Positions 21,897-38,300 of a stretch of 41,837 nt of DNA are shown in pieces. Within the stretch, counting starts at the first letter, position 1. Each line of letters opens with the position of its first letter. The notes beneath the pieces are model-generated. The model did no database searches. It was given only the letters and a program-made list of their open reading frames with translations, and had not been told where the DNA came from. The stretch is from Solirubrobacterales bacterium (GTDB taxonomy: Bacteria > Actinomycetota > Thermoleophilia > Solirubrobacterales > 70-9), in the NCBI GenBank assembly GCA_020438355.1, contig JAGQUT010000017.1, positions 1 to 41,837 on the forward strand, written 5' to 3'. The position numbers were made by a program, and so were the translations under genes.

Positions 21897-24800
21897 TCAG
21901 GGGGTGAGAGCCGTGAGCACGATTCGTTCCTGCTCGCGGATGTGCGCGACCGAGTAGCCCTCCGAGGGACTTGACCGTTCCGGACGACCGATGTACTCGA
22001 GATTCACCCCGTCCGGGAGGATCGGAGGCAACCGTCGCCACATCGTTGCCCAGGCGCCCATGTTCTTCGGCTCTTCCTGGACCCAGGCCACTTCCTTGAG
22101 GTTCGGGTAGAGCTTGAACATCTCGGCCAGCTGCCGGCCCGGGAACGGGTAGAGCAGCTCGACTCTCGCCACGGCGACCCGCTCGGCGGTATCGCGAGGG
22201 GCCGCAGCATCCAGGTCGTGGTAGATGCGGCCGGAGCAGAGGACCAGTCTTTCGACCTTCTCGCGCCGATCGATCGCCTTCGGATCGTCGAGGATGAAGT
22301 GGAAGTGTTCTTCTGTTAGCTGCTCCAGCGATGCAGTCGCGGCGGACTGTCGCAGCAGGCCCTTCGGGGTGAAGACGACCAGCGGTCGCGCCTTCTTGAT
22401 CAGCGCCTGCCGTCTGAGCAGATGGAAGTACTGGGCGGCGGTCGAGGGGTTCGCCACGCGCATGGAGCCTTCTGCGGCCAACTGGAGGAATCTCTCCATC
22501 CTGGCGCTGGAGTGCTCGGGTCCTGCTCCTTCGTGGCCGTGGGGAAGCAGAAGCGTAAGTCGCGAAGTCAGACCCCATTTCGCCTCTCCGGACGCGATGA
22601 AGCTGTCGATGATCACCTGGGCCGAGTTGGCGAAATCTCCAAACTGTGCTTCCCACAGGACCAGGGAGTCCGGGTTGGATGAGGCGTACCCGTACTCGAA
22701 CCCGAGGCAGGCGATCTCCGAAAGCGGGCTGTTGTGGAGCTCGAACGGTGCGGTCGCGTCGGCAAGGTGCTGGATCGGCGCGTACTTGATGCCGGTCTTC
22801 TCGTCGTGGAGGACGAGGTGCCGCTGCGAGAAGGTTCCCCGTTCGGTGTCCTGACCGGTCATTCGAACGTGCTTGCCCTCGGTGATCAGGGAGGCGAGCG
22901 CGAGCGACTCGGCATGCGCGAACTCGACTCCGCCTTCTTCCAGCGCCTCGATCCGCCGGTTGAGAGGCTTTCGGAGCTTGCGGTGGATCGTGAAACTGGC
23001 CGGGACTTCCAGAAGTGCCTGGTTGAGTTCGCGCAGGCGATCCGCCGGCACGGCGGTCTGGACGGGCGGGCTGGCTGAACGGTCGAGCTCCCCGGTACCG
23101 ATGTTGGTGACGGTCGGATCCTCGTAGACGCCCGTGTCCATCTTCTTGCGGAGACCTTCGAGGGTCTCCTTCAGGTAGCTGCGACGCTTCTCGGCAGCGG
23201 CTTCGACTTCCTCTGCGGTGACGACCTTCTGTTCGATCAGCTGCTCGGTGTAGATCTCGGATACGGGCTTGTGTTTCTTGATCTCCGCGGCCATCAGTGG
23301 CTGCGTGTAGGCCGGCTCGTCTGTTTCGTTGTGCCCGAATCGGCGGTAACCGATCACATCGATAACGATGTCCCGGTTCCAGCGTTCGCGGTAAGCCATC
23401 GCGAGTCGCATCGCCTGCGAGCAGGCCTCGACGTCATCCGCGTTTACATGGAGGATCGGAACGTTGAATCCCTTGGCCATGTCCGCCGCGTAAGGGGTGG
23501 AGCGGCCATCGGTCGGGTTGGTCGTGAAGCCGATCTGGTTGTTCTCGATGATGTGGATCGTGCCGCCCACCGAGTAGCCCTCCAGCGACTGGAGGTTGAA
23601 GGTTTCAGCGACAACTCCCTGACCAGGGAACGCGGCGTCGCCGTGAAGGACCACGGGCACCGCGCTGGACGGGTCCAGGGTCAGGCTTCCGCCATCGATC
23701 ACTCCCTGCGAGTAGCGGGTGGCTCCCGTGACGACCGGGTCGACGAACTCGAGGTGGCTCGGGTTCGGGTAAAGGTGCACGTTGATGCTGGTTCCGTCGT
23801 GATGCTCTGCCACACCCTCGTGCCCGTAGTGGTACTTGACGTCGCCGGTTCCGCCATGGGGGATCGCGGCCAGTGATTTCACGTCTTCGATCCGCTTGCC
23901 ACCTTCGAATTCGGCGAAGATCGCTTCCGCGGGTCGGCGGACCGTGTGGGCAAGCACCGAGAGGCGACCGCGGTGGGCCATTCCCAGCACGACTTCCCTG
24001 GCCCCGCCTCGCGCCGCGAGGGTCGTCAGTTCGTCGAGCATGGTGACGATCGAGTCGAGCCCCTCGATCGAGAACATTTTCTGTCCCAGGTAGGCCTTCT
24101 CGAGGAATCTCTCGAACTCGAAGACGTCGATCAGCCGACCCAGCAGCCGCTTCTGTTCTTCCTTGTCGAAAGCCTTGCGGTGAGCGCCGGTCTCGACCAT
24201 TTCCCGCAGCCAGACACGCTGACTATGCGACGAGATGTGCTCGAACTGGTAGCCGATTGAACCGGTGTAGGCGGCCTTCATCCGGGGGAGGGCTTCGAGC
24301 AGGGTCTCGCCCGGGACACCGATCCTGAGGATCGACGCCGGGATCTGTGCCATGAGTTCCGGGGTCAGGTGGACCGTTTCCGGGTCAAGTGCCGGATCTC
24401 CCTTGGGTTCGGCACCTAGCGGATCGAGATTGGCGGCGAGGTGACCGTGAGTGCGGTAGGCCTTGAGCAGCGAGGTTGCCGCCTGGACAGCCTGGAGCAG
24501 CTCCGGGCTCGGAGCTTCGGCGATCGCGCTCGGTGAGGGGGCAGCGGCAGCCGCCAGGGGCGGCGCCTGTTTGGCCTTGGCCTGGGCTGCTGCCAGCACG
24601 GTCCGGTCGACGCCGAGATCGTCGGCAACGGACTCGTAGAACTCCTCGCCGCCGGCCAGCAGGCCGTCGAGCGTCTTCAGGAAGTTGCCCGACTCGGCGC
24701 CCTGGATGATCCGGTGGTCATATGTGGAAGTGAGGGTCATGACCTTGGAGATGCCGAGCTGCTCGATCTTCTCCTTGTCGGCCAGTGACCACTCGGGCGG

Positions 24801-26192
24801 GTAAGCGATCGAGCCGGCAGCGACGATTGTTCCCTGCCCGGTCATCAGGCGGGGAACGGAAGCGACTGTTCCGATCCCGCCCGGATTCGTGAGGGTGATG
24901 TTCGTTCCGGCGAAATCGTCGGGGGTGAGGCGGTTTTCCCTGGTTTTGGTGATCAGGTCTTCGTAGTAGGCATGGAAAGCAGTGAAGTCGAGCTGGTCGG
25001 CACCCTTGATCGCAGGAACCATGAGCGAGCGGGAGCCGTCCTTCTTCTCGACGTCGACCGCGATGCCGAGATTGATCTGCCCGACCGAAACCGAGTAGGT
25101 CTTGCCGTCGCGCTCTTCGAAATGCCTTGCCATGACCGGCCACTGGCGGGCGGCCTGCACGATCGCCCAGGCCACGAGGTGGGTGAAGGAGACCTTCATC
25201 CCCCGTTCCGCGAGGGCACCGTTCAGGCCCTTGCGCTTGGCGTCCAGCGTGTCGACGGCAATCGTCCGGAACGATGTCGCGGTCGGGATCGACCGGCTCT
25301 CGTCCATCGCCTTGGCGAGCATTCCGGCCGGACCGCGGAGAGCCTTCTCCTCGCGGTCTGCCGCGACAGCGCCGCTACCGTTGCCGGCCGCGAGAACGTC
25401 CGCCTTGGTCACCTTTCCGCCCGGTCCGCTGCCTGAAACCTGGTCGATCCTGAGCCCCTTCGCCGCGGCGACCCGTTTGGCGACCGGGGTCGCACGACCG
25501 TCGCCGACATCGGCGGCGATCGACGCTTCAGGGGCGGAATCGGAGGCAGCGACAGCGCTGCCACCACCGGAACCCGCACCGGGAATCATCCGGCAGAGGG
25601 CTGCCCCGATCGGAATCACCTGATCGGGATCGACAAGAAGTTCCGTGATCTCTCCGGCGCTCGGGGCCGGGACTTCGGCATCAACCTTGTCGGTTGAAAC
25701 CTCGACCAGGGTCTGGCCTTCCTCGACCTGGTCACCGACCGCCACATGCCATTCGAGCACGGTCCCCTCGGTCACCGACTCGCCCATCTCGGGCATCGTC
25801 ACTTCAACCGGCTCTCCCGCAGGCTCATCAGCTGCGGGTTTGCTCCCGTTGGGGGCGCTGGAAGCCTTCGGGGTAACGCTGTCGCCGAGGTCCGAGTCAC
25901 CTTCGCCACCACCGGTGCCCGAGGAGGGGCCGGAACCACTGGCATCCGGGTCAATGACCGCAAGGATCGAGCCAATCGCGATCTCGTCATCTACTTCCGC
26001 ACGAAGTTCGGTGACGGTGCCGGAAACCGGGGCGGGAACCTCTGCGTCGACCTTGTCGGTCGATACCTCAACGAGGGTTTCGCCCTCCTCGATGGTGTCG
26101 CCGACCGCTACGTGCCATTCGAGCACGGTCCCCTCGGTCACCGACTCGCCCATCTCGGGCATCGTCACTTCAACTGCTGTCGCTTCGGCCAT
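21897..26192 (-). CDS. kgd: Fused 2-oxoglutarate dehydrogenase E2-E1 with two lipoyl domains
   Basis: About 1431 residues from the ATG at 26192 (a TTG three codons upstream is possible). In order: lipoyl domain 1 (lysine K47 in STDKVD), lipoyl domain 2 (K169), peripheral-subunit-binding domain (about 233-269, ATPVAKRVAAAKGL), E2 acyltransferase core (about 297-522, YDHRIIQGAESG with H493), and E1 thiamine-diphosphate dehydrogenase (about 555 to end, LGMAHRGRLSVLAH and GDAAFPGQGVVAET). The E2-E1 fusion is the actinobacterial KGD/OdhA layout, but characterised KGD/OdhA proteins lack lipoyl and binding domains and borrow AceF's. This one carries both, so it lacks only E3. It makes succinyl-CoA in the TCA cycle. 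No Shine-Dalgarno is evident; TACACT just upstream would allow a leaderless message. Confidence 0.95.
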   Translation of the reverse strand: MAEATAVEVTMPEMGESVTEGTVLEWHVAVGDTIEEGETLVEVSTDKVDAEVPAPVSGTVTELRAEVDDEIAIGSILAVIDPDASGSGPSSGTGGGEGDSDLGDSVTPKASSAPNGSKPAADEPAGEPVEVTMPEMGESVTEGTVLEWHVAVGDQVEEGQTLVEVSTDKVDAEVPAPSAGEITELLVDPDQVIPIGAALCRMIPGAGSGGGSAVAASDSAPEASIAADVGDGRATPVAKRVAAAKGLRIDQVSGSGPGGKVTKADVLAAGNGSGAVAADREEKALRGPAGMLAKAMDESRSIPTATSFRTIAVDTLDAKRKGLNGALAERGMKVSFTHLVAWAIVQAARQWPVMARHFEERDGKTYSVSVGQINLGIAVDVEKKDGSRSLMVPAIKGADQLDFTAFHAYYEDLITKTRENRLTPDDFAGTNITLTNPGGIGTVASVPRLMTGQGTIVAAGSIAYPPEWSLADKEKIEQLGISKVMTLTSTYDHRIIQGAESGNFLKTLDGLLAGGEEFYESVADDLGVDRTVLAAAQAKAKQAPPLAAAAAPSPSAIAEAPSPELLQAVQAATSLLKAYRTHGHLAANLDPLGAEPKGDPALDPETVHLTPELMAQIPASILRIGVPGETLLEALPRMKAAYTGSIGYQFEHISSHSQRVWLREMVETGAHRKAFDKEEQKRLLGRLIDVFEFERFLEKAYLGQKMFSIEGLDSIVTMLDELTTLAARGGAREVVLGMAHRGRLSVLAHTVRRPAEAIFAEFEGGKRIEDVKSLAAIPHGGTGDVKYHYGHEGVAEHHDGTSINVHLYPNPSHLEFVDPVVTGATRYSQGVIDGGSLTLDPSSAVPVVLHGDAAFPGQGVVAETFNLQSLEGYSVGGTIHIIENNQIGFTTNPTDGRSTPYAADMAKGFNVPILHVNADDVEACSQAMRLAMAYRERWNRDIVIDVIGYRRFGHNETDEPAYTQPLMAAEIKKHKPVSEIYTEQLIEQKVVTAEEVEAAAEKRRSYLKETLEGLRKKMDTGVYEDPTVTNIGTGELDRSASPPVQTAVPADRLRELNQALLEVPASFTIHRKLRKPLNRRIEALEEGGVEFAHAESLALASLITEGKHVRMTGQDTERGTFSQRHLVLHDEKTGIKYAPIQHLADATAPFELHNSPLSEIACLGFEYGYASSNPDSLVLWEAQFGDFANSAQVIIDSFIASGEAKWGLTSRLTLLLPHGHEGAGPEHSSARMERFLQLAAEGSMRVANPSTAAQYFHLLRRQALIKKARPLVVFTPKGLLRQSAATASLEQLTEEHFHFILDDPKAIDRREKVERLVLCSGRIYHDLDAAAPRDTAERVAVARVELLYPFPGRQLAEMFKLYPNLKEVAWVQEEPKNMGAWATMWRRLPPILPDGVNLEYIGRPERSSPSEGYSVAHIREQERIVLTALTP
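25747..25808 (-). repeat. Exact 62-base repeat within the lipoyl domains, copy in domain 2
   Basis: These 62 bases are identical to 26113-26174. They encode the N-terminal part of the second lipoyl domain (VTMPEMGESVTEGTVLEWH). The exact identity, including wobble positions, means recent duplication or gene conversion. Confidence 0.9.
26113..26174 (-). repeat. Exact 62-base repeat within the lipoyl domains, copy in domain 1
   Basis: Partner of 25747-25808, offset 366 bases (122 codons, in frame). It lies at the start of the fused dehydrogenase gene. Confidence 0.9.
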
Positions 26193-26201
26193 GTGGTCCA
26201 A

Positions 26202-26348: not shown

Positions 26349-28340
26349 GTGGATTACTTCATCACCGGAGGCACCGGTTTCATCGGTCGCTACCTGATCG
26401 AGAGGCTGCTGAAGCGCGACGGGACGGTGCATGTTCTGGTGCGCGAAGGCTCACGAGGAAGGTTCGAGGAGATGCGCGCCGGCTGGGGAGAGGATGGCGA
26501 GCGCGTCGTGCCGGTGATCGGCGACATCGGGCAGGCCAACCTGGGTCTCGATGCCGAACAGATCGCGGAACTGAAGGGCAGGATTGACGCCTTCTACCAC
26601 CTGGCTGCGGTATACGACATGGAAGCCGACGAGGAAGCGATCCGGGCCGGCAACATCGAGGGGACGATCAACGCAGTCGATCTGGCCAACGAACTCGAGG
26701 TTGGCTGCTTCAACCACGTCAGCTCCATCGCCGCCGCGGGCCTGTTCAAGGGCACCTGGCGCGAAGACTTCTTCGACGAGGCCGAGAACCTTGACAAGCA
26801 CCCCTACTTCCGGACCAAGCACGAGTCGGAGCGGATCGCCCGTGAGCGGACGACCGTGCCGTGGCGGGTGTACCGGCCGGGAATCGTGGTCGGTGACTCC
26901 GAGACCGGCCAGATGGACAAGATCGACGGTCCGTATTACTTCTTCAAGCTGATCCAGCGGCTGCGCAACGTCCTGCCTCCCTGGGCACCCACGATCGGCA
27001 TCGAAGGCAAGCAGATCAACGTGGTGCCGGTCGACTTCGTCGCGGACGCGATCGACCACATCAGTCATCTCGAGGGCAAGGACGGGATGGCCTTCCACCT
27101 GACCGACCCCAACCCGCTTCGGGCCGGTCAGATCATCAATCTCTTCGCCCGGTCGGCAAACGCCCCCCAGATGTCGATGCGACTGGATCCCCAGATGCTC
27201 GAGGTCGTTCCGCCGGCGGTCCGCGGCGGCCTGATGATGCTGCCTCCGGTCAAGCGGATAACCGATTCGGTGCTCGAGGATCTCGGTATTCCCCGGGAAG
27301 TTCTGGTCTACATCAACTACCCGACCAAGTTCGACTGTTCGAACACCCTCGAGGCTCTCGAAGGCACCGACATCGCGGTCCCGCCTCTTGCCTCGTATTC
27401 GGACCAGCTCTGGGACTACTGGGAGCGAAACCTCGATCCTGACCTGTTCAAGGACCGCTCGCTCGGTGGCGCGATCGGCGGCAAGGTCGTGATGATCACC
27501 GGTGCTTCTTCCGGGATCGGCGAGGCGGCAGCGATCAAGGTGGCGGCCGCCGGAGCGAAGGTTCTGCTCGTTGCCCGCAGCCGGGACAAGCTTGAGGAAA
27601 TCCAGACTCTGATCGCCGAGGAGGGCGGCGAGGCATACATCCATACGGCCGACCTCTCGGACACCGATGACATCGAGCGGATGGCGGATGAGGTGCTGGC
27701 CGAGCATGGTCACGTCGATGTGCTGGTCAACAATGCCGGCCGCTCGATCCGGCGTTCGGTGGCACTTTCGTACGACCGGTTCCACGATTACGAGCGGACA
27801 ATGCAGCTCAACTACTTCGGATCGCTGAAGCTGATCCTGAAGCTGCTTCCGAGAATGCGCGAACGCAAGTCGGGTCACATCATCAACGTGAGCTCGATCG
27901 GCGTCCAGACCAATGCGCCGAGGTTCTCGGCCTACGTCGCCTCAAAGGCGGCGCTGGATGCGTTCAGCCGCTGCATCGGCTCGGAGATCATCGACGACAA
28001 GGTGCACATCACGACGATCCACATGCCCCTGGTGCGGACCGCGATGATCGCCCCGACCAAGATGTACGACGCGTTCCCGGCCATCAGTCCGGATGAAGCT
28101 GCGGAGATGATCACCGACGCGATGATCCGCAAACCGAAGAAGGTGGCGACCAGGCTCGGAACGTTCGGCGAACTTCTCTACAGCCTCTCCCCGAAAGCAT
28201 CGGACGCGATCCTCAACACCGGCTACAAGCTGTTTCCCGACTCCAAGGCAGCCAAGGGCGAGGATGACACCGGGACCGACAAGGCTCCGTCGACCGAGGC
28301 AGTTGCCTTCGCGCACCTGTTGCGCGGCGTCCACTGGTAG
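26349..28340 (+). CDS. Two-domain fatty acyl-CoA reductase (alcohol-forming, Marinobacter type)
   Basis: This 663-residue protein has a GTG start fixed by GGAGGAGGAG at 26337-26346. The N-terminal half is an extended SDR/NAD-binding domain: TGGTGFIG at 6-13, HLAAVYDM near 83, HVSSIAAAGLFKG near 125 and YFRTK near 155. The C-terminal half is a classical SDR: TGASSGIG near 385, NNAGRSIRRS near 465 and YVASK near 530. Length, domain order and long stretches (VDGPYYFFK-type, YWERNLDPDLFKDR, ERTMQLNYFGS) match the Marinobacter enzyme that reduces fatty acyl-CoA to fatty alcohol using NADPH. The next gene starts 2 bases after its stop and resembles alkyl-DHAP synthase, which consumes fatty alcohol. 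Wax-ester synthesis is the main alternative role, but no wax synthase is in the window. Confidence 0.93.
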   Translation: MDYFITGGTGFIGRYLIERLLKRDGTVHVLVREGSRGRFEEMRAGWGEDGERVVPVIGDIGQANLGLDAEQIAELKGRIDAFYHLAAVYDMEADEEAIRAGNIEGTINAVDLANELEVGCFNHVSSIAAAGLFKGTWREDFFDEAENLDKHPYFRTKHESERIARERTTVPWRVYRPGIVVGDSETGQMDKIDGPYYFFKLIQRLRNVLPPWAPTIGIEGKQINVVPVDFVADAIDHISHLEGKDGMAFHLTDPNPLRAGQIINLFARSANAPQMSMRLDPQMLEVVPPAVRGGLMMLPPVKRITDSVLEDLGIPREVLVYINYPTKFDCSNTLEALEGTDIAVPPLASYSDQLWDYWERNLDPDLFKDRSLGGAIGGKVVMITGASSGIGEAAAIKVAAAGAKVLLVARSRDKLEEIQTLIAEEGGEAYIHTADLSDTDDIERMADEVLAEHGHVDVLVNNAGRSIRRSVALSYDRFHDYERTMQLNYFGSLKLILKLLPRMRERKSGHIINVSSIGVQTNAPRFSAYVASKAALDAFSRCIGSEIIDDKVHITTIHMPLVRTAMIAPTKMYDAFPAISPDEAAEMITDAMIRKPKKVATRLGTFGELLYSLSPKASDAILNTGYKLFPDSKAAKGEDDTGTDKAPSTEAVAFAHLLRGVHW

Positions 28341-28342
28341 GG

Positions 28343-29971
28343 ATGCGCCGACTCAAACACTGGGGCTGGGGTTACGAAGACCAGCAGCAGCCGCATGAGC
28401 AGATAGTTGCCGCCTCCGAGGGCATCATCCCGATGCTCGGCTTCGGCCTTGCGCCGGAGCGGCCCGTGCCCCTCGACCAAGTCGAGCTCAGGCCCTCAAG
28501 GCTTGATTCGCCAGGCGGAATCTTCACCGACGACCTGCATGAGCGGGTAGTCCACTCACTCGGCAAGGCCTACCGGGACATCGTTCGGGGCTTTTACGGG
28601 CAGTTCGAGAACCCGCCGGACCTCGTCGCCTTTCCCGAGGACGAGGCCGGGGTGGTCGAAGTCCTCGAGCGGGCGGCTGACTGGGGTGCGGCCGTGATCC
28701 CGTTCGGTGGCGGGACCTCGGTATGCGGGGGGGTCGAACCCCGCTTTGATGATCGACCGGTCGTATCCCTGGACATGACCCGGATGAACCGGCTGCTCGA
28801 AGTCGACGAGACATCGCTGGCCGCCAGGATCCAGGCGGGAGCACGAGGACCGCAGCTCGAAGAACAGTTGAAGGCGCAGGGCCTGACCCTTCGCCACTTC
28901 CCTCAGTCCTTTGAATACGCGACCCTCGGTGGCTGGCTGGTGACCCGGGCCGGGGGCCATTTCGCGACGGGCGAAACCCACGTAGACGACCTGACCGAGT
29001 CGATCCGGGCGATCACCCCGGCCGGTGAATGGGAAAGCCGACGGCTGCCAGGCTCCGGCGCCGGCCCTTCCCCGGACCGGATGCTGCTCGGCTCGGAGGG
29101 CATTCTTGGTGTGGTGACCGAAGCCTGGATGAGGGTGCGACCCCGACCGGATTTCAAGGCGACCACAACGGTCGAGTTTCCCCCCGGTGACCGCGCCTTC
29201 TCCGAGGCCGCCACGGGCGCGGTCCGGCTGATCGCCCAGTCGCGGCTCATGCCGAGCAACCTGCGGCTGATCGACTCGCTTGAGGCGAAGACCACGATGG
29301 CCGGGGACGGCTCCGCGACTTTGCTGATCATCGGTTTCGAGTCTGCCGGCCAGCCGGTCGAAGACAGGATGGACCAGGCGGTGGCGATCGCCGAGTCCGC
29401 TGGAGGCCGGGTCGCTTCCCGGAGTTCGTCGACCCCGGCCGACCGGGCCTCAGGCCAGGACGGTGTGGAGGATGCGGGGGCCGACCGGTGGCGTTCCGCT
29501 TTCCTCATGGCTCCCTACATGCGGGACACGTTTGTCGCCTGCGGAGTGATTGCCGAGACCTTCGAGACCTCGATCACCTGGGACCGGTTCGATGACTTCC
29601 ATCGCGATGTCATCGAGTCGACCCGAAAGGCTGTCGCCGAAGTGACCGGCGCCCCGGGAGACGGTGATGGTGCCCCGCGGGTGAGCTGCCGGTTGACCCA
29701 TGTCTATCCGGATGGAGCCGCGCCCTACTTCACCGTGCTCGCACCGGCGCGCCGGGGGAGCGAGGTCGAACAGTGGGACGAGATCAAGGCGGCTGCCTCG
29801 GAAGCGATCGAGAAGGGTGGAGGCACGATCACCCACCATCACGCAGTGGGCCGTGATCACCGCCCCTGGTACGACCGTCAGCGTCCGGATCAGTTCGCCG
29901 CCGCTCTGGCCGCCGCCAAGTCAGCCGTCGACCCGGACAACATGCTGAATCCGGGGGTCCTGATCGGCTGA
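28343..29971 (+). CDS. FAD-binding oxidase family, probable alkyldihydroxyacetonephosphate synthase
   Basis: This 542-residue flavoprotein of the VAO/PCMH fold has the FAD-binding PFGGGTSVCGGVE near residue 121, SFEYATLGGWLVTRAGG near 190 and the DRMLLGSEGILGVVTEA loop near 250. It ends with THHHAVGRDHRPWY near 497 and DPDNMLNPGVL. The His-rich motif close to the C-terminus and the short N-terminal LKHWGWG segment are features of alkyl-DHAP synthase (AGPS), which replaces the acyl chain of acyl-DHAP by a fatty alcohol to form an ether bond. It is 2 bases downstream of the fatty acyl-CoA reductase, so the pair is co-translated. A D-lactate or glycolate oxidase-like enzyme is the alternative; the HHH motif and context favour AGPS. 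Confidence 0.85.
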   Translation: MRRLKHWGWGYEDQQQPHEQIVAASEGIIPMLGFGLAPERPVPLDQVELRPSRLDSPGGIFTDDLHERVVHSLGKAYRDIVRGFYGQFENPPDLVAFPEDEAGVVEVLERAADWGAAVIPFGGGTSVCGGVEPRFDDRPVVSLDMTRMNRLLEVDETSLAARIQAGARGPQLEEQLKAQGLTLRHFPQSFEYATLGGWLVTRAGGHFATGETHVDDLTESIRAITPAGEWESRRLPGSGAGPSPDRMLLGSEGILGVVTEAWMRVRPRPDFKATTTVEFPPGDRAFSEAATGAVRLIAQSRLMPSNLRLIDSLEAKTTMAGDGSATLLIIGFESAGQPVEDRMDQAVAIAESAGGRVASRSSSTPADRASGQDGVEDAGADRWRSAFLMAPYMRDTFVACGVIAETFETSITWDRFDDFHRDVIESTRKAVAEVTGAPGDGDGAPRVSCRLTHVYPDGAAPYFTVLAPARRGSEVEQWDEIKAAASEAIEKGGGTITHHHAVGRDHRPWYDRQRPDQFAAALAAAKSAVDPDNMLNPGVLIG

Positions 29972-29990: not shown

Positions 29991-30548
29991 TCAGGCCAGG
30001 GCCGCGGTGTAGATCTCGTGGAGTTCCTGGCGGGTCTGGTCGAGAGGCTCCACAGATTTCTCGGTGCGGCTGAGCACGATTGCTCCCTCGATCGCCGAAA
30101 TCGCCAGGGTCGCGAGTGAGCTGGCCCGCCTGGCCTCCACTCCTGCTTCGATCAGGGCGTTGGTCAGCGAGGTGTGAATCTGGCTGAAGGCTCGGGCGGC
30201 GGGGATGGAGGCTTCTTCGCTGGCACCGGCCACTGCCGCGGCCATAAGGGGGCAACCCTCCCGGAAATCGGTGCGCTCCAGCTCGCGCATGTAAAAACTG
30301 GCAAAGCGGTCGACCATTTCGGCGGGCCCATCATCTGCCTGGTCGAAATTGGCGGCAACGTAGACCCCCGCCGACTCGATCGCTTCCGAAACCAGCTGCT
30401 TCTTCCCTCCGGGGAAATGGTGGTAGACCGAACCCCGGGGGGCTCCGCTCGCTTCGAGTACGTCGGCAAAAGAGGTGTCGCCGACACCACGCTCACGAAA
30501 GAGCCGTATAGCCGAGCCGAGCATCGCCTCCCGGGTTCCAGTCGCCAT
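29991..30548 (-). CDS. TetR-family transcriptional regulator
   Basis: This 185-residue regulator has the N-terminal helix-turn-helix in TSFADVLEASGAPRGSVYHHFPGGK (about 25-50). The C-terminal domain contains REGCPLMAAAVAGA near 97, as in the LmrA/YxaF-like subgroup. The frame continues upstream to 30677 but overlaps the tautomerase gene; the ATG at 30548 with GAGAGG seven bases before it is the better start. It lies 25 bases after the tautomerase stop and is likely co-transcribed from the promoter at 31068-31097, which carries two palindromes suited to a TetR dimer. It is convergent with the alkyl-DHAP synthase gene, 19 bases apart. The ligand is unknown; an acyl-CoA or fatty alcohol would fit the neighbours. 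Confidence 0.92.
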   Translation of the reverse strand: MATGTREAMLGSAIRLFRERGVGDTSFADVLEASGAPRGSVYHHFPGGKKQLVSEAIESAGVYVAANFDQADDGPAEMVDRFASFYMRELERTDFREGCPLMAAAVAGASEEASIPAARAFSQIHTSLTNALIEAGVEARRASSLATLAISAIEGAIVLSRTEKSVEPLDQTRQELHEIYTAALA

Positions 30549-30573
30549 TCGATCTACCTCTCTCCGCAGTCGG

Positions 30574-31032
30574 TCAGGCGGCGGCGCCCGCTTCGGCCTT
30601 CGCTTCTTCCCGCTGTGCCTTGGCGATCTCGACCAGTTGCTTGTAATGGACCACGTTCCCACCGGCTCCCCAGCCACCGTCGACCACGTCGCGGCAGAGA
30701 ACCCAGACCTTCAGCAGGTCCTCGTCAGCGACACCAAAGGCTTCGCGGATCGCCGCGGTACCGGCTTCGATCATTCGCGCGCGGCGCTCGTCGTTCAGGG
30801 CGCCTTCGGGAGTGACAACGTCGAGCTTGACGACTCCTGCGCCAGGCCTGTCGCCGGCATAAACCAACTCGGCAGGACGCTCATTGACGAGCACCCAGGT
30901 GACGCTGCGGAAGAACTCTGTGTTCGGGGCACCTTCGGCCTTGAGCAGGCTCGTGGTGAGTGTCTCGACCAGTTCGTCGCGGACTTCGGGGGTGATCGCC
31001 CCTTGCTGGTAACTCAGTTCCATCAGTGGCAT
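30574..31032 (-). CDS. Tautomerase-superfamily protein
   Basis: This 152-residue protein becomes Pro-1 after Met removal (MPLMELSYQQGAI), the N-terminal catalytic proline typical of 4-oxalocrotonate tautomerase, MSAD and cis-CaaD relatives. It seems to contain two beta-alpha-beta units (about 1-60 and 65-130), with VTWVLVNERP near 44 and LKVWVLCRDVVDGGWGAGG near 105. The tail is a Lys/Glu/Ala helix. The start is the ATG at 31032. It is the first gene of a unit with the TetR regulator. The substrate is unknown; tautomerases of this size act on small keto-enol acids or dehalogenation products. Confidence 0.8.
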   Translation of the reverse strand: MPLMELSYQQGAITPEVRDELVETLTTSLLKAEGAPNTEFFRSVTWVLVNERPAELVYAGDRPGAGVVKLDVVTPEGALNDERRARMIEAGTAAIREAFGVADEDLLKVWVLCRDVVDGGWGAGGNVVHYKQLVEIAKAQREEAKAEAGAAA

Positions 31033-31169: not shown

Positions 31170-32075
31170 ATGGAAGCTTCCTCCGAATACAAACTCACCG
31201 AGCGCGGACCACTGCGGGCTGCCCTCAAGACGGCGCGGCCCCAGGAATGGGTCAAGAACGTCCTGGTCTTTGCCGGAGTCATCTTCTCCGGTCAGCTCGA
31301 CGACACATGGGCGATCGGCCAGGCGCTGATCACCTTCGCCTGCTTCTGTGCGATTTCGAGCGCCGGCTACTTCATCAACGACCTCAACGATGTCGAACTC
31401 GACAGGCAGCATCCGAAGAAGCGCTTTCGCCCGATCGCTGCCGGCCAGCTGCCTATCGGGGCCGCATGGGTGATCTCGGCCGGACTCGCGATCGGAGCGA
31501 TCGCCGTCGCCTTCGGCGTCGTCAACTGGCAGGTCGGCTGCATGGTCACCGGATACGGAGTCATCCAGGTCGCCTACAGCTTCGGCCTCAAGCAGGTCGT
31601 GATCATCGACGTGATGACCCTGGCCACCCTGTTCATCCTCAGGGTGATGGCCGGTGCCGAAGCGGTCGATGCGCATGCATCCGAGTGGCTCATCCTCTGC
31701 ACCGGCATGCTCGCCTGCTTCCTGGGCTTCACCAAACGGCGCCAGGAAGCCGTTTCCGAGCTACACGAAGGGACCAGCAGCAGGCCGGTTCTCGAGCATT
31801 ACTCGCTGCCGTTCCTGGACCAGATGGTCGCCATGGTCACCACCGGCACCGTGGTCAGCTACTCGATCTACACCGTCAACTCGCCCCTGGCGGGTTCGGA
31901 GATGATGCTGACGATTCCCCCCGTCGTATACGGGATTTTCCGCTATCTGTACCTGATTTACGACCGGTCTGACGACCGTTCGACTGCGGCAATAGTGGCC
32001 GAGGACCGGGGCGTGATGATCGCCGGTGCGGTCTTCGTGGCGATGGCACTTCTCGTGCTTTACGCCTTCGATTGA
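31170..32075 (+). CDS. UbiA-family polyprenyl-phosphate phosphoribosyltransferase-like membrane enzyme
   Basis: This 301-residue protein has about 8-9 membrane segments. The first UbiA aspartate motif is NDLNDVELD (70-78), followed by RQHPKKRFRPIAAG. These segments, together with RPQEWVKNVLVFAG near 23 and FTKRRQEA near 190, match the decaprenyl-phosphate phosphoribosyltransferase group (mycobacterial Rv3806c type). That enzyme moves phosphoribose from PRPP onto a polyprenyl phosphate for arabinan or ribosyl donors. No Shine-Dalgarno is seen at the ATG. Outside mycobacteria the final product is uncertain; no DprE1/DprE2 partners are in the window. The promoter of the giant gene overlaps its stop codon. 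Confidence 0.85.
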   Translation: MEASSEYKLTERGPLRAALKTARPQEWVKNVLVFAGVIFSGQLDDTWAIGQALITFACFCAISSAGYFINDLNDVELDRQHPKKRFRPIAAGQLPIGAAWVISAGLAIGAIAVAFGVVNWQVGCMVTGYGVIQVAYSFGLKQVVIIDVMTLATLFILRVMAGAEAVDAHASEWLILCTGMLACFLGFTKRRQEAVSELHEGTSSRPVLEHYSLPFLDQMVAMVTTGTVVSYSIYTVNSPLAGSEMMLTIPPVVYGIFRYLYLIYDRSDDRSTAAIVAEDRGVMIAGAVFVAMALLVLYAFD

Positions 32076-32101: not shown

Positions 32102-32360
32102 TTTCGATCCCGACGGTGAAACCTTTCGTATTCAGAGGGGTTATTTCCGTTGAAGACATACCCATATGAACATGGGAGACGGGTTCGGGACCCATCGAGA
32201 ACCGGCATCAGGCCGGGGATCCCGAGGAAACCCTGTGAGCTGCAAATTCTCGAACCCTTGCGGCAGCTGACCGGGCCTTCGAGGCTTTCCCACCGTTCGC
32301 ACCAGGCCAATTGGATATTGACCGGGTACCAATCAGGTGACCCAGAGTCTCGGAGATGAA
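32102..32360 (+). other. Long 5' leader of the giant secreted-protein gene
   Basis: No gene is seen here. Several short stems can form: CCCAT-ATGAAC-ATGGG, GGGT-TCGGG-ACCC, CGGC-ATCAG-GCCG and AGCTGC with GCAGCT. I could not match it to a known riboswitch. It may set mRNA stability or translation for a very large secreted product. Confidence 0.4.
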
Positions 32361-35300
32361 ATGAACCCGAATAACCGCATCGCTGTCAGCATTATCGCCC
32401 TCCTCGCCCTCGTGGCCGGGCTGCTCGTCTCAAGCGCGCCCGCCAGCGCCGCCGGCACGCCTGACCTGGCTATTTCAGCCAGCGCGTCGAGTCCGCTCTA
32501 CGGCGAGACCGGCACGGTTTCGGTAACCGCGTCCCTCCCTTCCGGGCAGCCCAAGGGCTACAACCTCGCGTTCAGGGTCGTCCTTCCGAAGGGCATCTCC
32601 TACGCGGGCGGCGCCGAGTTCGCCCCCACCGTGATCGCGGACAAGCCGAACACCGGCGAGACCACCCTCCTTTTCAACAACATCTCGGACCTCGTCCCGA
32701 ATTCCTCGCAGGGGATCTCGTTCGAGGTCAACCACGACAAGACCCTCTTCGACGTCGGATCGACCTACAAGATCGACTACGAGGCCTTCATCAACACCGA
32801 TCCGCGCATCATGCCGGACTTTGATGGTGCCGGAGCCCCGATCGTCGCTAGTTCGACCGGCAATGCCTCCACCTCGACTACCTCGCGGATCAACGCGATC
32901 AAGATCAGCAAGTCCGAGCCGAGCCGTGAAGGCGAGATCCTTCGTGGCGTCCACAACCACCAGACGATCTACACGCTGAAGGTCCGCAACAACCTGGTCA
33001 ACCCGACCAAGGGCACCGCGATCGACGACTGGCTCCCGGCCGACCTCGAGTTCCTGGGCTGCGAGGGTGATCCGGACAACACCACGGACGCGCCGACCAA
33101 CCCCGGTTCCAGCGAGGAGTACCCCGGATCCGGTCCGATCAAGATCAACCCGGTTGACGACTGCTACAAGCCGGTTCTGGTCGAGACCGTCATGGCCGAC
33201 CCGGACGGTTCGGGCCCGATGCCCGAGGCCGTTTACACGCATGTGGGCTGGGACACCGGCGACCTGGCTCCCGGCCAGGAGATCACCTACCGCTACCGCG
33301 CCGCGGTTCCACTCTCCGAGAACACGCTCGAGTGGAGCGGCACCGAGCCGACCCCCGAGTCGGGTGCGCAGGCTGCGAATCTCGATAACAACGCCGTCAA
33401 GCCCGCCCTGGAAATCCAGGACGAACAGAAGATCGTCAACTACGCGATCGCGACCGGCGAGTACCAGTCCAACACGGTCCCCTTCAACGTTTCCGACGAA
33501 ACCACCCTTGAACGTACCGCCGAGGACCTGGTCGTCTACAAGTCGAACCTGACCTCGAACCAGCTCGCCCAGAACGCGATCAACACCTGGGAGCTCCGCT
33601 TCCGCACCGGCGAGTACCGCTACAGCGACGAGATCGTCGTCACCGACACACTGCCTTCGGGCCTCTGTCCGCTCGGACCGCAGAACTACACCACGAATAA
33701 CGACTCCAGCGACAAGGAATGCGATCCGACCGGTGACAACCCGAGCGTTCCTTACCGGGATGTGACCGAGAACGCTGACGGTACCTTCACCATCACCTGG
33801 GACAAGTCGGTCCTCGCCAAGCTAGGTCACACGGATGTGAGCGACGAGTTCGTGATCACCTTCCCGACCCGCACTCGAAGCCACTACCAGGCCGACTTCA
33901 AGCCGAGCACCCCGCTGCTCGCCCGGGACTCGATCTCGAACAAGGTCAACCTGACCGGTGACGCCTACTCCCGCTGTGTCGATCCCGGCACCCCGGACTG
34001 CGCCACCCCGGGTCCGCAGATCTGGAGTGACGGGCAGCAGCCCGAGCCGGTTGTCGACGCATCCTCGGCCGGCCAGAGCGCCCCGGGCGTCGTCCTCAGC
34101 AAGCAGGTTGCCGAAAGCGGCAGCAATTGTGTGACCGCGACCTGGGTCAACACCATCCCGACCTACCAGCCCGGCGACACGATCTGCTGGCGAGTGACCC
34201 TGGACTTCCCGGCAAACGTGGACACCAGGCAGCTCCGGGTCACGGACTTCCTTCCGCGAAACGCTGCCTACGTGCCCGGCAGCTACGCCGACACCTCGGC
34301 CAACACCACTGACAACGCGATCGACACCAGCATGAGCGCCAACGGCGTCCTCTTCTGGGACATCAACGACGTTTACGTGCCCAAGGGCTCCCAGAAGTTC
34401 CAGGTCACCTTCAAGACCACGATCGAGCCGACCGGCGTCCTGCCTCCCGTTGACATCGAGGGCAACCTCGCCAAGTTCGCTTACTCGAACACCGCGGGCA
34501 CCTCGTTCCCGCTCAGGGACCAGGCCGACTTCCAGACCGTGACCCCCACGCTTGAACTCAAGAAGGGTGTCCGTCAGGTCGATTCCGGAACCGTCAACAA
34601 CCCGCCGATCGACGGTGTGACAGTGCGCGGCGGCAACATCGTCACCTACCAGGTGGACGTGAAGTCCACCCGCGACACCAAGGACATCCAGGTTTGGGAC
34701 CAGCTTCCGGCCGCCTACGACTGCTCGATGGTCTCCTCGATTTCCGATTCCGGCATCTGCGTTGACGGCGGAAGCGGAGTCGACCGGATCAAGTGGACGG
34801 TCCCGGCGATCAACGACGGCTCGACCAAGTCGCTCACCTACAAGGTTGCGATCCCGGGAACCTTCGGCCCCGAAAACACTTACGTGAACAAGGCCGGCGT
34901 TCGCCAGTACGAATCGGACACCAACACGGGTGGCCGCTACATCTACACCCCGCAGAACAACATCGACCCGGCTAACCCCCGGACGCCGAACGTGCCGCGG
35001 GTTGATGACGAGAGCAACGTCAAGACCCCGAACGTCGGACTGGTCAAGACCCGCTCGACCTCGATTTCCGAGACTGGCAACAGCGCCTCGAGCCAGGCCA
35101 CGATCGGCGAGCTGATCAACTACACGGTCACCGCGACCCTGCCGCAGGGGACCACGTTCGGCAAGAACGCGAAGATCACCGATACCCCGAACTCGGCCAC
35201 CACCCAGCCGCTGACCGGGCCCGCGACGGCGCTGCTCAACGGCTCGCCCCTGCCTGCCGGCTGGAGCATCGCCACCGTCGGTCAGACCATCACGGTCAAC

Positions 35301-38300
35301 ATCCCGGACAACTACGTGGTGCCGGTCGGCTCGGACCACACCGTCACGATCACCTTCCAGACCCGGGTCACCGATGTTTCAGCGAATGTCCGGGGCCAGA
35401 ACCGCACCAACCAGGCGAACATCGCCTGGACCGACGGTTCCGCCAGAAGCAAGAACTCGAACTCGGTCTCGACGACCATCGTCGAGCCGCTGATCTCGCA
35501 GACGAAGACGAACAACAAGTCATCGAACGCGAAGCCGAACGACGTCGTGACCTACACCCTGGTCACCGCCAACTCGAACTCGTCGAACGTCAGCATTGCC
35601 CATGACGTCGTGATCAAGGATGTCGTTCCGGCTGGAATCACCCTGATCGACGGCGGGGGCAACCCGCTCGCCGACGGCGCGGTCGTCCCGGGCACCGGCG
35701 GAGCCACATGGAACGCCGCCACGAGGACCATCACCTCCGCTGCATCACCGGCGATCAACATCAACCCGGGCAGCAACGTCACCTGGACCTACCAGGCAAA
35801 GATCGACTCACCGGCGGTCGCCGGCAGCGTGTTCACCAACACCGCCAATGCCCGCACCACCTCGATCGACGGATCCAACCCGAACGAACGGACTGCATCG
35901 AGCGGCACCAACACCGGCTACGTCGCTTCCTCCAGTAGCAACGTCCGGGTTGGCGGCAGCTCGGTGACCAAGTCAGTCGATCCCGCGTGGGTCACCATCG
36001 GCACGCCGATGACCTACAAGGCGACGGTCACGATCCCGAAGAACCTGAAGTTCTTCAACCTGACCGTGCTTGACCTGCTCCCCGACTCGATTGATTTCGA
36101 CGGCTACGTCGGCTCGAGCTGCATCAGCGGCTGCTCGGTTTCCAACCCGGCTCCGACCGTCCAGAACTACAACGCCCAGGTCGCCCCCTCGGCTACCACA
36201 ATCGGATGGGACCTCGGCACCGTAGATGCCGGATCCGCCGATCGCGTCATCGAGTTCACCTACAAGGCCCATGTCCGTGACACCCACCGCAACGGTGGCG
36301 CCAAGGTCCTGGCCGGCGAGAACATCGTCAACAAGGTCAACTCGATGTCCAACACATCGGTCAAGTTCACCTTCGATCCGAACGTGATCAGGCCGACCAA
36401 CGGATTCGACCACCTCTCGCCCGAGGCCAAGACGACGACCCCGGTGCGCGAGCCCAAGGTCACGCTTGACAAGAAGGTGAAGATCGGTGCCGGGAGCTTC
36501 GTTGACGGACCGGCCCAGAGCCAGCCCGGTGACGCACTGACCTATCGCATCGTCGTCACAAACAGCGGCACCAGCCCGGCCTACGACCTGGTGGTCGACG
36601 ACATGCCCGATGCCGAGCTCACCAACGTTGTGCTCGATCAGGGATCTTCCTTCAACACCAAGGCGTGGAGTGCCGGCGACCGATCGATGCGCTGGGTCAT
36701 CCCCGGCCCGGTCAACCCCGGCCAGAGCGTCACGCTGACCTACACCGCCAACGCCGTCTCCTCGGCCCAGCTCGCCAACGGCGACTCTGCGATCAACACT
36801 GCCGGTTCTTCCTACTGGGGCATCCCGGTGGCCGAGCGGACCAACCCGTGGACCTACCGCGGTTATGACAGCAACCAGGACACGGTCCGGATCGACTTCG
36901 AGTTCCCCGAACTGACAGTCGTGAAGACCACAGCGGCGCCGGGCTTCCCGGATATCGCCGACGCGCAGGTGGAGCAGCCCTTCGGCTGGAGGATCGTCGT
37001 GACCAACTCGGCGACCACCGCGAAGGCCTTCGACACCGTGGTGCGCGACGTGCTGCCGCCGCACTGGACCTACAACGCCGGATCGACCGTTATCACCGGA
37101 GCCACCGGCGGAGACCCGTCGGTCGCGACGGACCCGGCTGGTGACGTCCTGACCTGGAGCTTCAACGGCCAGGTGATCCAGCCCGGAGCGAGCGTCGTGA
37201 TCAGGTTCACCGCGACCCCGCAGCTCCCGGCCCGCGCTAACCCGCCGGTCCAGGTCAACGACGCGGATGCGACGACCAGGGACGCCAGCGGCGCCAATGG
37301 CAACAAGACCGGTCCCTACAAGGACGAGGATGATGCCAAGGCGACCCTGAAGTTCCCGATCGCCGATCTCAAGATCGAGAAGTCGGCACCGGCCCAGGTC
37401 AACGTGCTCGACGAGTTCGACTACGTGCTCAAGGTGACCAACAAGGGTCCGGACACGGCTACCCAGGTCGCGATCAGCGACCCGCTGCCGGCCGGCCTCC
37501 AGTTCGTCTCCTCGGCTGACTGCACCGCTGCGATTTCCTGCAGCCTCGGGACCATGGTCTCGGGTGCTTCGAAGACCGTGACCATCCGGGTCAAAGCGAC
37601 CTTCGCTGCCGGCGGCAACACGGTCCACAACGTGGCCACCGTGACCGGCAAGGAATGGGAGCCGACTCCGGAGGACAACACGGATGACGCTGACACCTTC
37701 GTCGTCGGTGTTCCCGATCTGAAGATCACGAAGACTGCCGTGCCGACGAATGCGCGTCCGGGCCAGACGGTTACTTACACGCTGAAGGCCGAGAACATCG
37801 GTAATGCGCGTGCGGAGAACGTTGTGATCACGGATCCGGTTCCGGTTGGTCTGACCTTCGTGAGTGCTGACGCTCCCTGTGTCGAGGCCGCTGGCACGGT
37901 GACCTGCGCGATCGGTTCGCTTGATCCGGGTGAGGTGAAGACCTACCAGGTGAAGGCGACCGTGGATCAGTGGGGTGATGCTGATCCGACCCAGAACCAC
38001 CAGCTTGACGTCCAGAAGGTTGAAACCCAGATTGATCTGAATCCGGGTGAAGTGAAGACGATCCAGGCGGTCTGCCCGTCGGGTTACTTCGCTTCTGACG
38101 GTTCGGTCCGGATCGACCATGTCGATCAGGGCACCGGTGACTGGACTGCTCCGCAGGTTCTGGAGTCAAGGGCTGCCGGTCTGGACAGGTGGCAGGGCAC
38201 CGTGAAGAACACGGCGACCGGCCGGGTCCAGGCGAAGATCTTCGCGGTCTGCATCCAGAAGCAGACGGTTGCCGATGGCACCCACACCCATGATCTGATC

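What the first reader, a model, noticed from the sequence alone, without database searches (positions are those of the whole stretch)
26349..29971. Fatty acyl-CoA reductase coupled to an alkyl-DHAP-synthase-like gene: candidate bacterial ether-lipid module
The sequence shows a two-domain alcohol-forming reductase ending 2 bases before a VAO-fold flavoprotein with the C-terminal HHH motif of AGPS. In eukaryotes, fatty alcohol from FAR1 is the substrate with which AGPS forms the ether bond of alkyl-DHAP. Finding the two activities as one translationally coupled unit in an actinobacterium suggests an aerobic ether-lipid route separate from the anaerobic plasmalogen (PlsA/R) system. The missing DHAP acyltransferase could be elsewhere in the genome. 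The biochemical assignment is inference.
Basis: partly seen in the sequence, partly recalled or inferred. Interest (0 to 1): 0.82.

Follow-up and report, generated by a model that had tools for sequence, protein, structure and literature searches.

The report
Fatty-alcohol reductase paired with AGPS-like flavoenzyme
In one family of actinobacteria, a gene for making fatty alcohols is kept directly in front of a gene resembling the animal enzyme that joins fatty alcohols into ether lipids; this makes an aerobic ether-lipid route plausible but unproven, because the first enzyme of that route was not found and the flavoenzyme's relatives elsewhere sit in other surroundings.

Summary
A two-domain fatty acyl-CoA reductase (26349-28340, +) ends 2 bases before an AGPS-family flavoprotein (28343-29971, +) in a Solirubrobacterales MAG. 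The flavoprotein is not a glycolate/lactate oxidase: its best solved relatives are AGPS (E 3.5e-69; fold Z 37 against about 30 for D-lactate dehydrogenase), and it keeps the Arg/Arg/Tyr shown important by mutagenesis plus the His-His-His motif.

The tandem is conserved in 26 genomes of one family (median gap 35 nt). In other families of the order both genes occur but apart, and no FAR was seen beside the flavoprotein in other orders or phyla.

Three results temper the ether-lipid reading. (1) The flavoprotein belongs to a widespread bacterial clade that lacks a 27-residue AGPS segment and is not the clade closest to eukaryotic AGPS; a second AGPS paralog exists whose clade, in other actinobacteria, lies beside GlpD and a lipid kinase. 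(2) No PlsB/GNPAT-type DHAP acyltransferase was found. (3) Wax ester synthases are present in every relative, so the reductase could serve wax esters. Myxococcus already has a FAR-AGPS operon.

Verdict: real, new variant of a known kind; ether-lipid function about 40% likely.

The parts
26349..28340 (+). Two-domain fatty acyl-CoA reductase (FAR; Maqu_2507/FCR1 type, NF005539/PRK07201), 663 aa
   Evidence: relatives; characterised homologues in PMC3522743
28341..28342 (+). 2-nt spacer between the FAR stop and the ATG of the flavoprotein
28343..29971 (+). AGPS-family FAD enzyme, 'clade A', 542 aa
29264..29266 (+). Codon of R308, equivalent of guinea-pig AGPS R419 / Dictyostelium R352
29522..29524 (+). 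Codon of R394, equivalent of R515 / R447
29726..29728 (+). Codon of Y462, equivalent of Y578 / Y508 (proposed catalytic base)
29834..29842 (+). Codons of H498-H500, equivalent of AGPS H615-H617
29991..30677 (-). TetR-family regulator (TetR_C_13_2), convergent neighbour; not shown to regulate the pair
31170..32075 (+). UbiA-family protein (decaprenyl-phosphate phosphoribosyltransferase model, 228 bits, cut-off 207), recurrent downstream neighbour in the family
21897..26201 (-). Fused 2-oxoglutarate dehydrogenase E2/E1 (KGD type), divergent upstream neighbour conserved in the family

Best explanation
The pair is an operon in which the FAR reduces long-chain acyl-CoA to fatty alcohol, and the AGPS-family flavoenzyme uses that alcohol to replace the acyl group of acyl-DHAP (or a close analogue), forming alkyl-DHAP, the first ether intermediate. 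Shown: gene order, conservation, family membership and intact catalytic residues. Inferred: enzyme activities, that the alcohol passes from one to the other, and that acyl-DHAP is the second substrate. Not identified: the acyl-DHAP-forming enzyme.
For: AGPS is the best solved relative by sequence and by fold, including the N-terminal domain absent from the D-lactate dehydrogenases (Z 37 with 508 residues aligned, against about 30.7 with 436). R352, R447 and Y508 of Dictyostelium AGPS, shown important by mutagenesis (PMC3509576), and the HHH motif are kept in the window protein and nearly all relatives, but the GlcD-type outgroup has E, E, H and GEH there. FAR-AGPS order and strand are conserved in 26 genomes of one family. 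AGPS consumes fatty alcohol, and FAR is the enzyme class that makes it. FAR and clade-A AGPS co-occur more often than chance in the rest of the phylum (6 genomes with both; 17 and 14 carriers of 284; Fisher 4e-5, not corrected for relatedness). Precedent: the M. xanthus operon MXAN_1676 (AGPS)/1675 (FAR1-like plus GNPAT-like), with a minor but measured role in ether lipids (PMC9131029).
Against: No GPAT_C (PlsB/GNPAT) protein in the genome or in nearly all relatives. WS/DGAT in 61 of 61 relatives. Clade A lacks about 27 residues (guinea-pig 433-462) present in eukaryotic AGPS and in bacterial clade C. Eukaryotic AGPS groups with clade C (UFBoot 89), not A. Neighbours of clade A in other phyla are alcohol and aldehyde dehydrogenases, CoA-transferases, TPP enzymes and the like. 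Either gene occurs without the other, e.g. G020, G043, G058 (FAR only) and G042, G060 (AGPS only). No lipid data.
Confidence: 0.42

Rival explanations
1. The FAR supplies fatty alcohol to WS/DGAT enzymes encoded elsewhere for wax-ester storage, and the AGPS-like flavoprotein is co-transcribed for a different, related purpose (for example a FAD-dependent oxidation step in fatty alcohol or hydroxy-acid turnover).
For: Characterised homologues of this reductase type, M. tuberculosis FCR1/Rv3391 and Marinobacter Maqu_2507, feed wax esters (PMC3522743). Three WS/DGAT genes in the own genome and at least one in all 61 relatives. Clade-A genes in other phyla sit beside redox and catabolic genes. In some genera the operon region continues with two acyl-CoA dehydrogenases.
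Against: No WS/DGAT lies in the window or on its contig. The conserved close linkage with an AGPS-type enzyme would be a coincidence. The flavoprotein keeps the residues of AGPS chemistry rather than those of GlcD/LDHD.
Confidence: 0.33
2. Ether lipids are made in these bacteria, but by the second AGPS paralog (clade B, G000:C78:141490-143085), while the window's clade-A enzyme uses the fatty alcohol with a non-DHAP acceptor.
For: In genomes that look like Mycobacterium and Streptomyces clade B lies next to GlpD (makes DHAP), a TetR and, in one, a DAGK/YegS lipid kinase; clade D likewise shares its locus with GlpD and a DAGK. In Solirubrobacterales clade B is near PgsA and often within 5-12 kb of WS/DGAT. 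Clade B keeps more of the AGPS segment that clade A lacks.
Against: FAR is linked to A, not B, in this family. Both paralogs keep the catalytic residues. By phmmer the window protein scores higher than B against mammalian AGPS (230 vs 195 bits), though lower against Dictyostelium (237 vs 265).
Confidence: 0.15
3. The flavoprotein is an ordinary glycolate/D-lactate dehydrogenase and the pairing is meaningless.
For: Shared VAO fold; weak GlcD model matches far below cut-off.
Against: AGPS-type residues and N-terminal domain present, GlcD-type residues absent, large score gap; linkage conserved in 26 genomes.
Confidence: 0.05

Closest known systems
Myxococcus xanthus MXAN_1676-1674 operon (AGPS; FAR1-like + GNPAT-like fusion; NAD-dependent epimerase/dehydratase) (PMC9131029)
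   Same: A bacterial operon joining an AGPS-family flavoenzyme with a fatty acyl-CoA reductase, in an aerobe.
   Different: There the reductase is FAR1-like and fused to a GNPAT-like acyltransferase. Here it is the two-domain Maqu_2507/FCR1 type with no acyltransferase in the operon.
Eukaryotic FAR1-GNPAT-AGPS peroxisomal ether-lipid pathway
   Same: The same two activities by homology; AGPS catalytic Arg/Arg/Tyr and HHH conserved.
   Different: No GNPAT homologue found; clade A lacks a 27-residue segment; eukaryotic AGPS is closer to a different bacterial clade (C).
Mycobacterium tuberculosis FCR1/Rv3391 and Marinobacter Maqu_2507 fatty acyl-CoA reductases
   Same: Two-domain architecture and length; 41-47% identity of the window FAR to homologues in family f32, which I take to be mycobacteria.
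   Different: Those serve wax esters; none is reported next to an AGPS gene in what I read.
Actinobacterial GlpD-TetR-AGPS(-DagK) loci (clades B and D here)
   Same: AGPS-family flavoenzyme with the catalytic residues.
   Different: Neighbours point to DHAP and lipid phosphorylation rather than to fatty alcohol; about 32-43% identity to the window protein.
Anaerobic PlsA/Ger ester-to-ether reductases (PMC11150832, PMC13274423)
   Same: Also produce bacterial sn-1 ethers.
   Different: Different chemistry (reduction of an ester in place) and a different protein family.

Membership tests
[quoted passage not shown]
   AF2 model pLDDT 88.6 aligns from residue 1 to AGPS 84-658, Z 37.4, rmsd 2.5, 508 residues
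[quoted passage not shown]
   R308, R394, Y462; roles from PMC3509576
[quoted passage not shown]
   H498-H500; HHH in all 57 AGPS-family sequences, GEH in the outgroup
[quoted passage not shown]
   Clade A lacks guinea-pig residues 433-435 and 439-462, but I could not map the published gating helix onto this segment
[quoted passage not shown]
   Eukaryotic AGPS groups with clade C (UFBoot 89); A is a separate clade; support for the root split and for A is weak (49, 59)
[quoted passage not shown]
   Needs an enzyme assay
Bacterial two-domain fatty acyl-CoA reductase (Maqu_2507/FCR1 type) | N-terminal NAD_binding_4 plus C-terminal SDR, full-length model above cut-off | tested here: met
   NF005539 956 bits over residues 1-663; PF07993 and PF00106
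Bacterial two-domain fatty acyl-CoA reductase (Maqu_2507/FCR1 type) | Nucleotide-binding and YxxxK motifs in both domains | tested here: met
   TGGTGFIG and YFRTK; TGASSGIG and YVASK, read in the translation
Bacterial two-domain fatty acyl-CoA reductase (Maqu_2507/FCR1 type) | Reduces acyl-CoA to alcohol | not testable with these tools
   Needs an assay; homologues are active (PMC3522743)
Aerobic FAR-GNPAT-AGPS ether-lipid pathway | PlsB/GNPAT-type DHAP acyltransferase (GPAT_C) | tested here: not met
   PF19277: no match in the own genome; only 1 of 61 genomes above cut-off; control rang in E. coli. Six PF01553 acyltransferases of LPAAT or unassigned type exist
Aerobic FAR-GNPAT-AGPS ether-lipid pathway | Plasmalogen desaturase CarF/PEDS1 (needed only for vinyl ethers) | tested here: inconclusive
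   PF10520: no match in 41 genomes, but no control rang
Wax ester pathway | WS/DGAT in the genome | tested here: met
   3 copies in G000, none on the window's contig; present in 61/61 genomes
Glycolate/D-lactate oxidase (GlcD/LDHD) | GlcD-type active-site residues and better score than AGPS | tested here: not met
   99.7 bits vs cut-off 567.9; active-site columns differ

The most novel reading that the evidence does not exclude
A family of Solirubrobacterales makes alkyl-ether glycerolipids aerobically with a wax-ester-type FAR coupled to a divergent, compact AGPS clade, fed by a DHAP acyltransferase not related to GNPAT. Its widespread clade-A relatives (Chloroflexota, Binatia, Proteobacteria, Streptomyces) would then be an overlooked pool of ether-bond-forming flavoenzymes.
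Probability: 0.3. Interest if true: 0.7.

Novelty: new variant of a known kind. Interest (0 to 1): 0.45.

Why it matters
The source of alkyl ethers in aerobic, non-thermophilic bacteria is mostly unknown outside myxobacteria, and mixed ether/ester membrane lipids are reported in another actinobacterial order, Rubrobacterales (title cited in PMC11150832). A conserved FAR-AGPS operon gives one concrete two-gene hypothesis that can be tested by expression in E. coli and lipid analysis, and the survey separates four bacterial AGPS clades that are worth assaying side by side.

Tried and rejected
Rejected: the flavoprotein as a GlcD/LDHD enzyme. Considered, not followed: a DprE1-like decaprenyl-ribose module, because a UbiA (DPPR synthase model) lies downstream; DprE1 matches the model much worse than AGPS does (Z 23.8 against 37). 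First tree with outgroup L003 discarded because L003 is a distant FAD oxidase with a very long branch; rerun without it. My simple GC-position gene caller missed the flavoprotein in some loci, so neighbour tables are incomplete. Sequences of eukaryotic AGPS in the tree were copied from the alignment printed (about residues 108-584 and 175-652 only).
Full report
WHAT IS THERE. The window is contig C42 of a 2.6-Mb, 97% complete MAG. The closest named records carrying the flavoprotein are Solirubrobacterales / Actinomycetota MAGs (85-88% identity). The FAR frame runs 26349-28340 from a GTG with a strong upstream GGAGGAGGAG, and the flavoprotein 28343-29971 from an ATG two bases after the FAR stop codon. 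The divergent upstream gene is a fused 2-oxoglutarate dehydrogenase E2/E1; downstream lie a TetR regulator and a tautomerase on the other strand, then a UbiA-family gene.

FAR. The protein matches the full length of NF005539/PRK07201 (956 bits; cut-off 549) and has a NAD_binding_4 and an SDR domain, both with intact cofactor and YxxxK motifs (read). This two-domain type includes M. tuberculosis FCR1/Rv3391, which reduces acyl-CoA to aldehyde and alcohol, is 40% identical to Marinobacter Maqu_2507, and is needed for normal wax ester levels (PMC3522743).

FLAVOPROTEIN. Sequence search of the PDB gives AGPS first (E 3.5e-69 and 5e-67) and glycolate oxidase at 1.5e-18. An AlphaFold2 model (pLDDT 88.6, 25-sequence alignment) matches mammalian AGPS over 508 residues including the N-terminal domain (Z 37.4) and D-lactate dehydrogenase over 436 residues without it (Z 30.7). 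Residues R352, R447 and Y508 of Dictyostelium AGPS, important by mutagenesis (PMC3509576), correspond to R308, R394 and Y462; the HHH motif is H498-H500. In a 58-sequence alignment HHH, the first Arg and the Tyr are invariant in the family and different in a GlcD-type outgroup; the second Arg aligns in 27 of 32 clade-A members.

FOUR BACTERIAL CLADES. A tree of bacterial and two eukaryotic sequences separates clade A (the window), B (a second copy in this genome at C78:141490-143085, 38% identity), C and D. Eukaryotic AGPS joins clade C (UFBoot 89). The deep root is not resolved (49) and clade A's own support is 59, so I do not claim which clade is oldest. Clade A lacks 27 residues (guinea-pig 433-435, 439-462) present in eukaryotes and in all six clade-C sequences and partly in B; the D and outgroup sequences also lack most of it. 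A gating helix is described as AGPS-specific (PMC3509576), but I could not establish whether this segment is that helix.

HOW CONSERVED IS THE PAIR. Among 61 related genomes, 26 of the same family carry FAR then AGPS on the same strand and contig, median 35 nt between match edges. In one family member they are on different contigs (G023), and one complete genome has FAR without clade-A AGPS (G020). In the other families of the order both genes are mostly present but were not adjacent. In a 296-genome sample of the phylum, six genomes outside the order have both, all unlinked; co-occurrence exceeds chance (Fisher 4e-5) but the carriers are related. In 80 named loci, many from other phyla (Chloroflexota, Binatia, Deltaproteobacteria, Alphaproteobacteria, SAR86, Streptomyces, a haloarchaeal record), FAR is next to the gene only in close relatives of the window; neighbours elsewhere include alcohol and aldehyde dehydrogenases, CoA-transferases, TPP enzymes, luciferase-like monooxygenases and aminotransferases. 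Linkage to FAR is therefore a local feature of one family, while the flavoenzyme is widespread.

PATHWAY CONTEXT. AGPS needs acyl-DHAP. The PlsB/GNPAT C-terminal family (PF19277) is absent from the own genome and above cut-off in only 1 of 61 genomes. Six other PF01553 acyltransferases exist, one fused to a GpsA-type glycerol-3-phosphate dehydrogenase; any of them might acylate DHAP, untested. WS/DGAT enzymes are in every relative, three in the own genome, none on the window's contig. CarF/PEDS1 was not found, but the search had no positive control. By contrast clade B (in genomes that look like Mycobacterium and Streptomyces) lies beside GlpD, a TetR and, in one locus, a diacylglycerol-kinase-family gene, and clade D shares its locus with GlpD and a diacylglycerol-kinase-family gene, a context that supplies DHAP and phosphorylates lipids. 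In Solirubrobacterales clade B is near PgsA and often WS/DGAT.

MECHANISM. Most likely (0.42): acyl-CoA is reduced to fatty alcohol by FAR and the adjacent flavoenzyme inserts it into acyl-DHAP by the AGPS mechanism described in PMC3509576 (Tyr removes the C1 proton, DHAP-flavin N5 adduct, loss of fatty acid, attack by the alcohol). The gene order and residues are shown; both activities and the acyl-DHAP step are inferred. Main rival (0.33): the FAR serves wax esters and the flavoenzyme does something else. Second rival (0.15): clade B is the ether-bond enzyme.

COMPARISON WITH THE KNOWN. Bacterial FAR-AGPS operons are not new: M. xanthus MXAN_1676 is an AGPS about 42% identical to the human enzyme, in an operon with MXAN_1675, which has FAR1-like and GNPAT-like domains, and its loss slightly lowers ether lipids (PMC9131029). 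What differs here is the reductase type, the AGPS clade, the missing acyltransferase and the phylum. I therefore call it a new variant of a known kind.

Noticed in passing
G000:C78:141490-143085 (L098:8982-10607, -): A second AGPS paralog (clade B) with all catalytic residues, its start overlapping the end of a lipid-transport-type SRPBCC gene and near a CDP-alcohol phosphatidyltransferase (PgsA-like); in many relatives a WS/DGAT gene lies 5-12 kb away.
   Followed up: partly
L190, L192, L206, L207: In other actinobacteria AGPS clades B and D share loci with GlpD and (L192, L207) a DAGK/YegS-type lipid kinase, a better ether-lipid context than that of clade A.
   Followed up: partly
G000:C45:139543 (L089:1366-3036, +): Acyltransferase (PF01553) fused in frame to an NAD-dependent glycerol-3-phosphate dehydrogenase (GpsA).
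   Followed up: partly
window 31170-32075 +: UbiA-family gene (decaprenyl-phosphate phosphoribosyltransferase model) recurs downstream of the pair; in some genera two acyl-CoA dehydrogenase genes follow (L049-L051).
   Followed up: partly
window 32337-39275 +: A 2312-aa protein that by reading consists of repeated conserved blocks typical of DUF11-like surface proteins; no family search was run.
   Followed up: no
L060, L061, L067: In a sister family of the order the KGD-type 2-oxoglutarate dehydrogenase gene is still near clade-A AGPS but FAR is elsewhere, suggesting FAR was gained or lost between them.
   Followed up: no
L164:8001-9617: A clade-A AGPS gene in a record titled Halorientalis regularis (haloarchaeon); possible transfer to archaea or contamination.
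   Followed up: no
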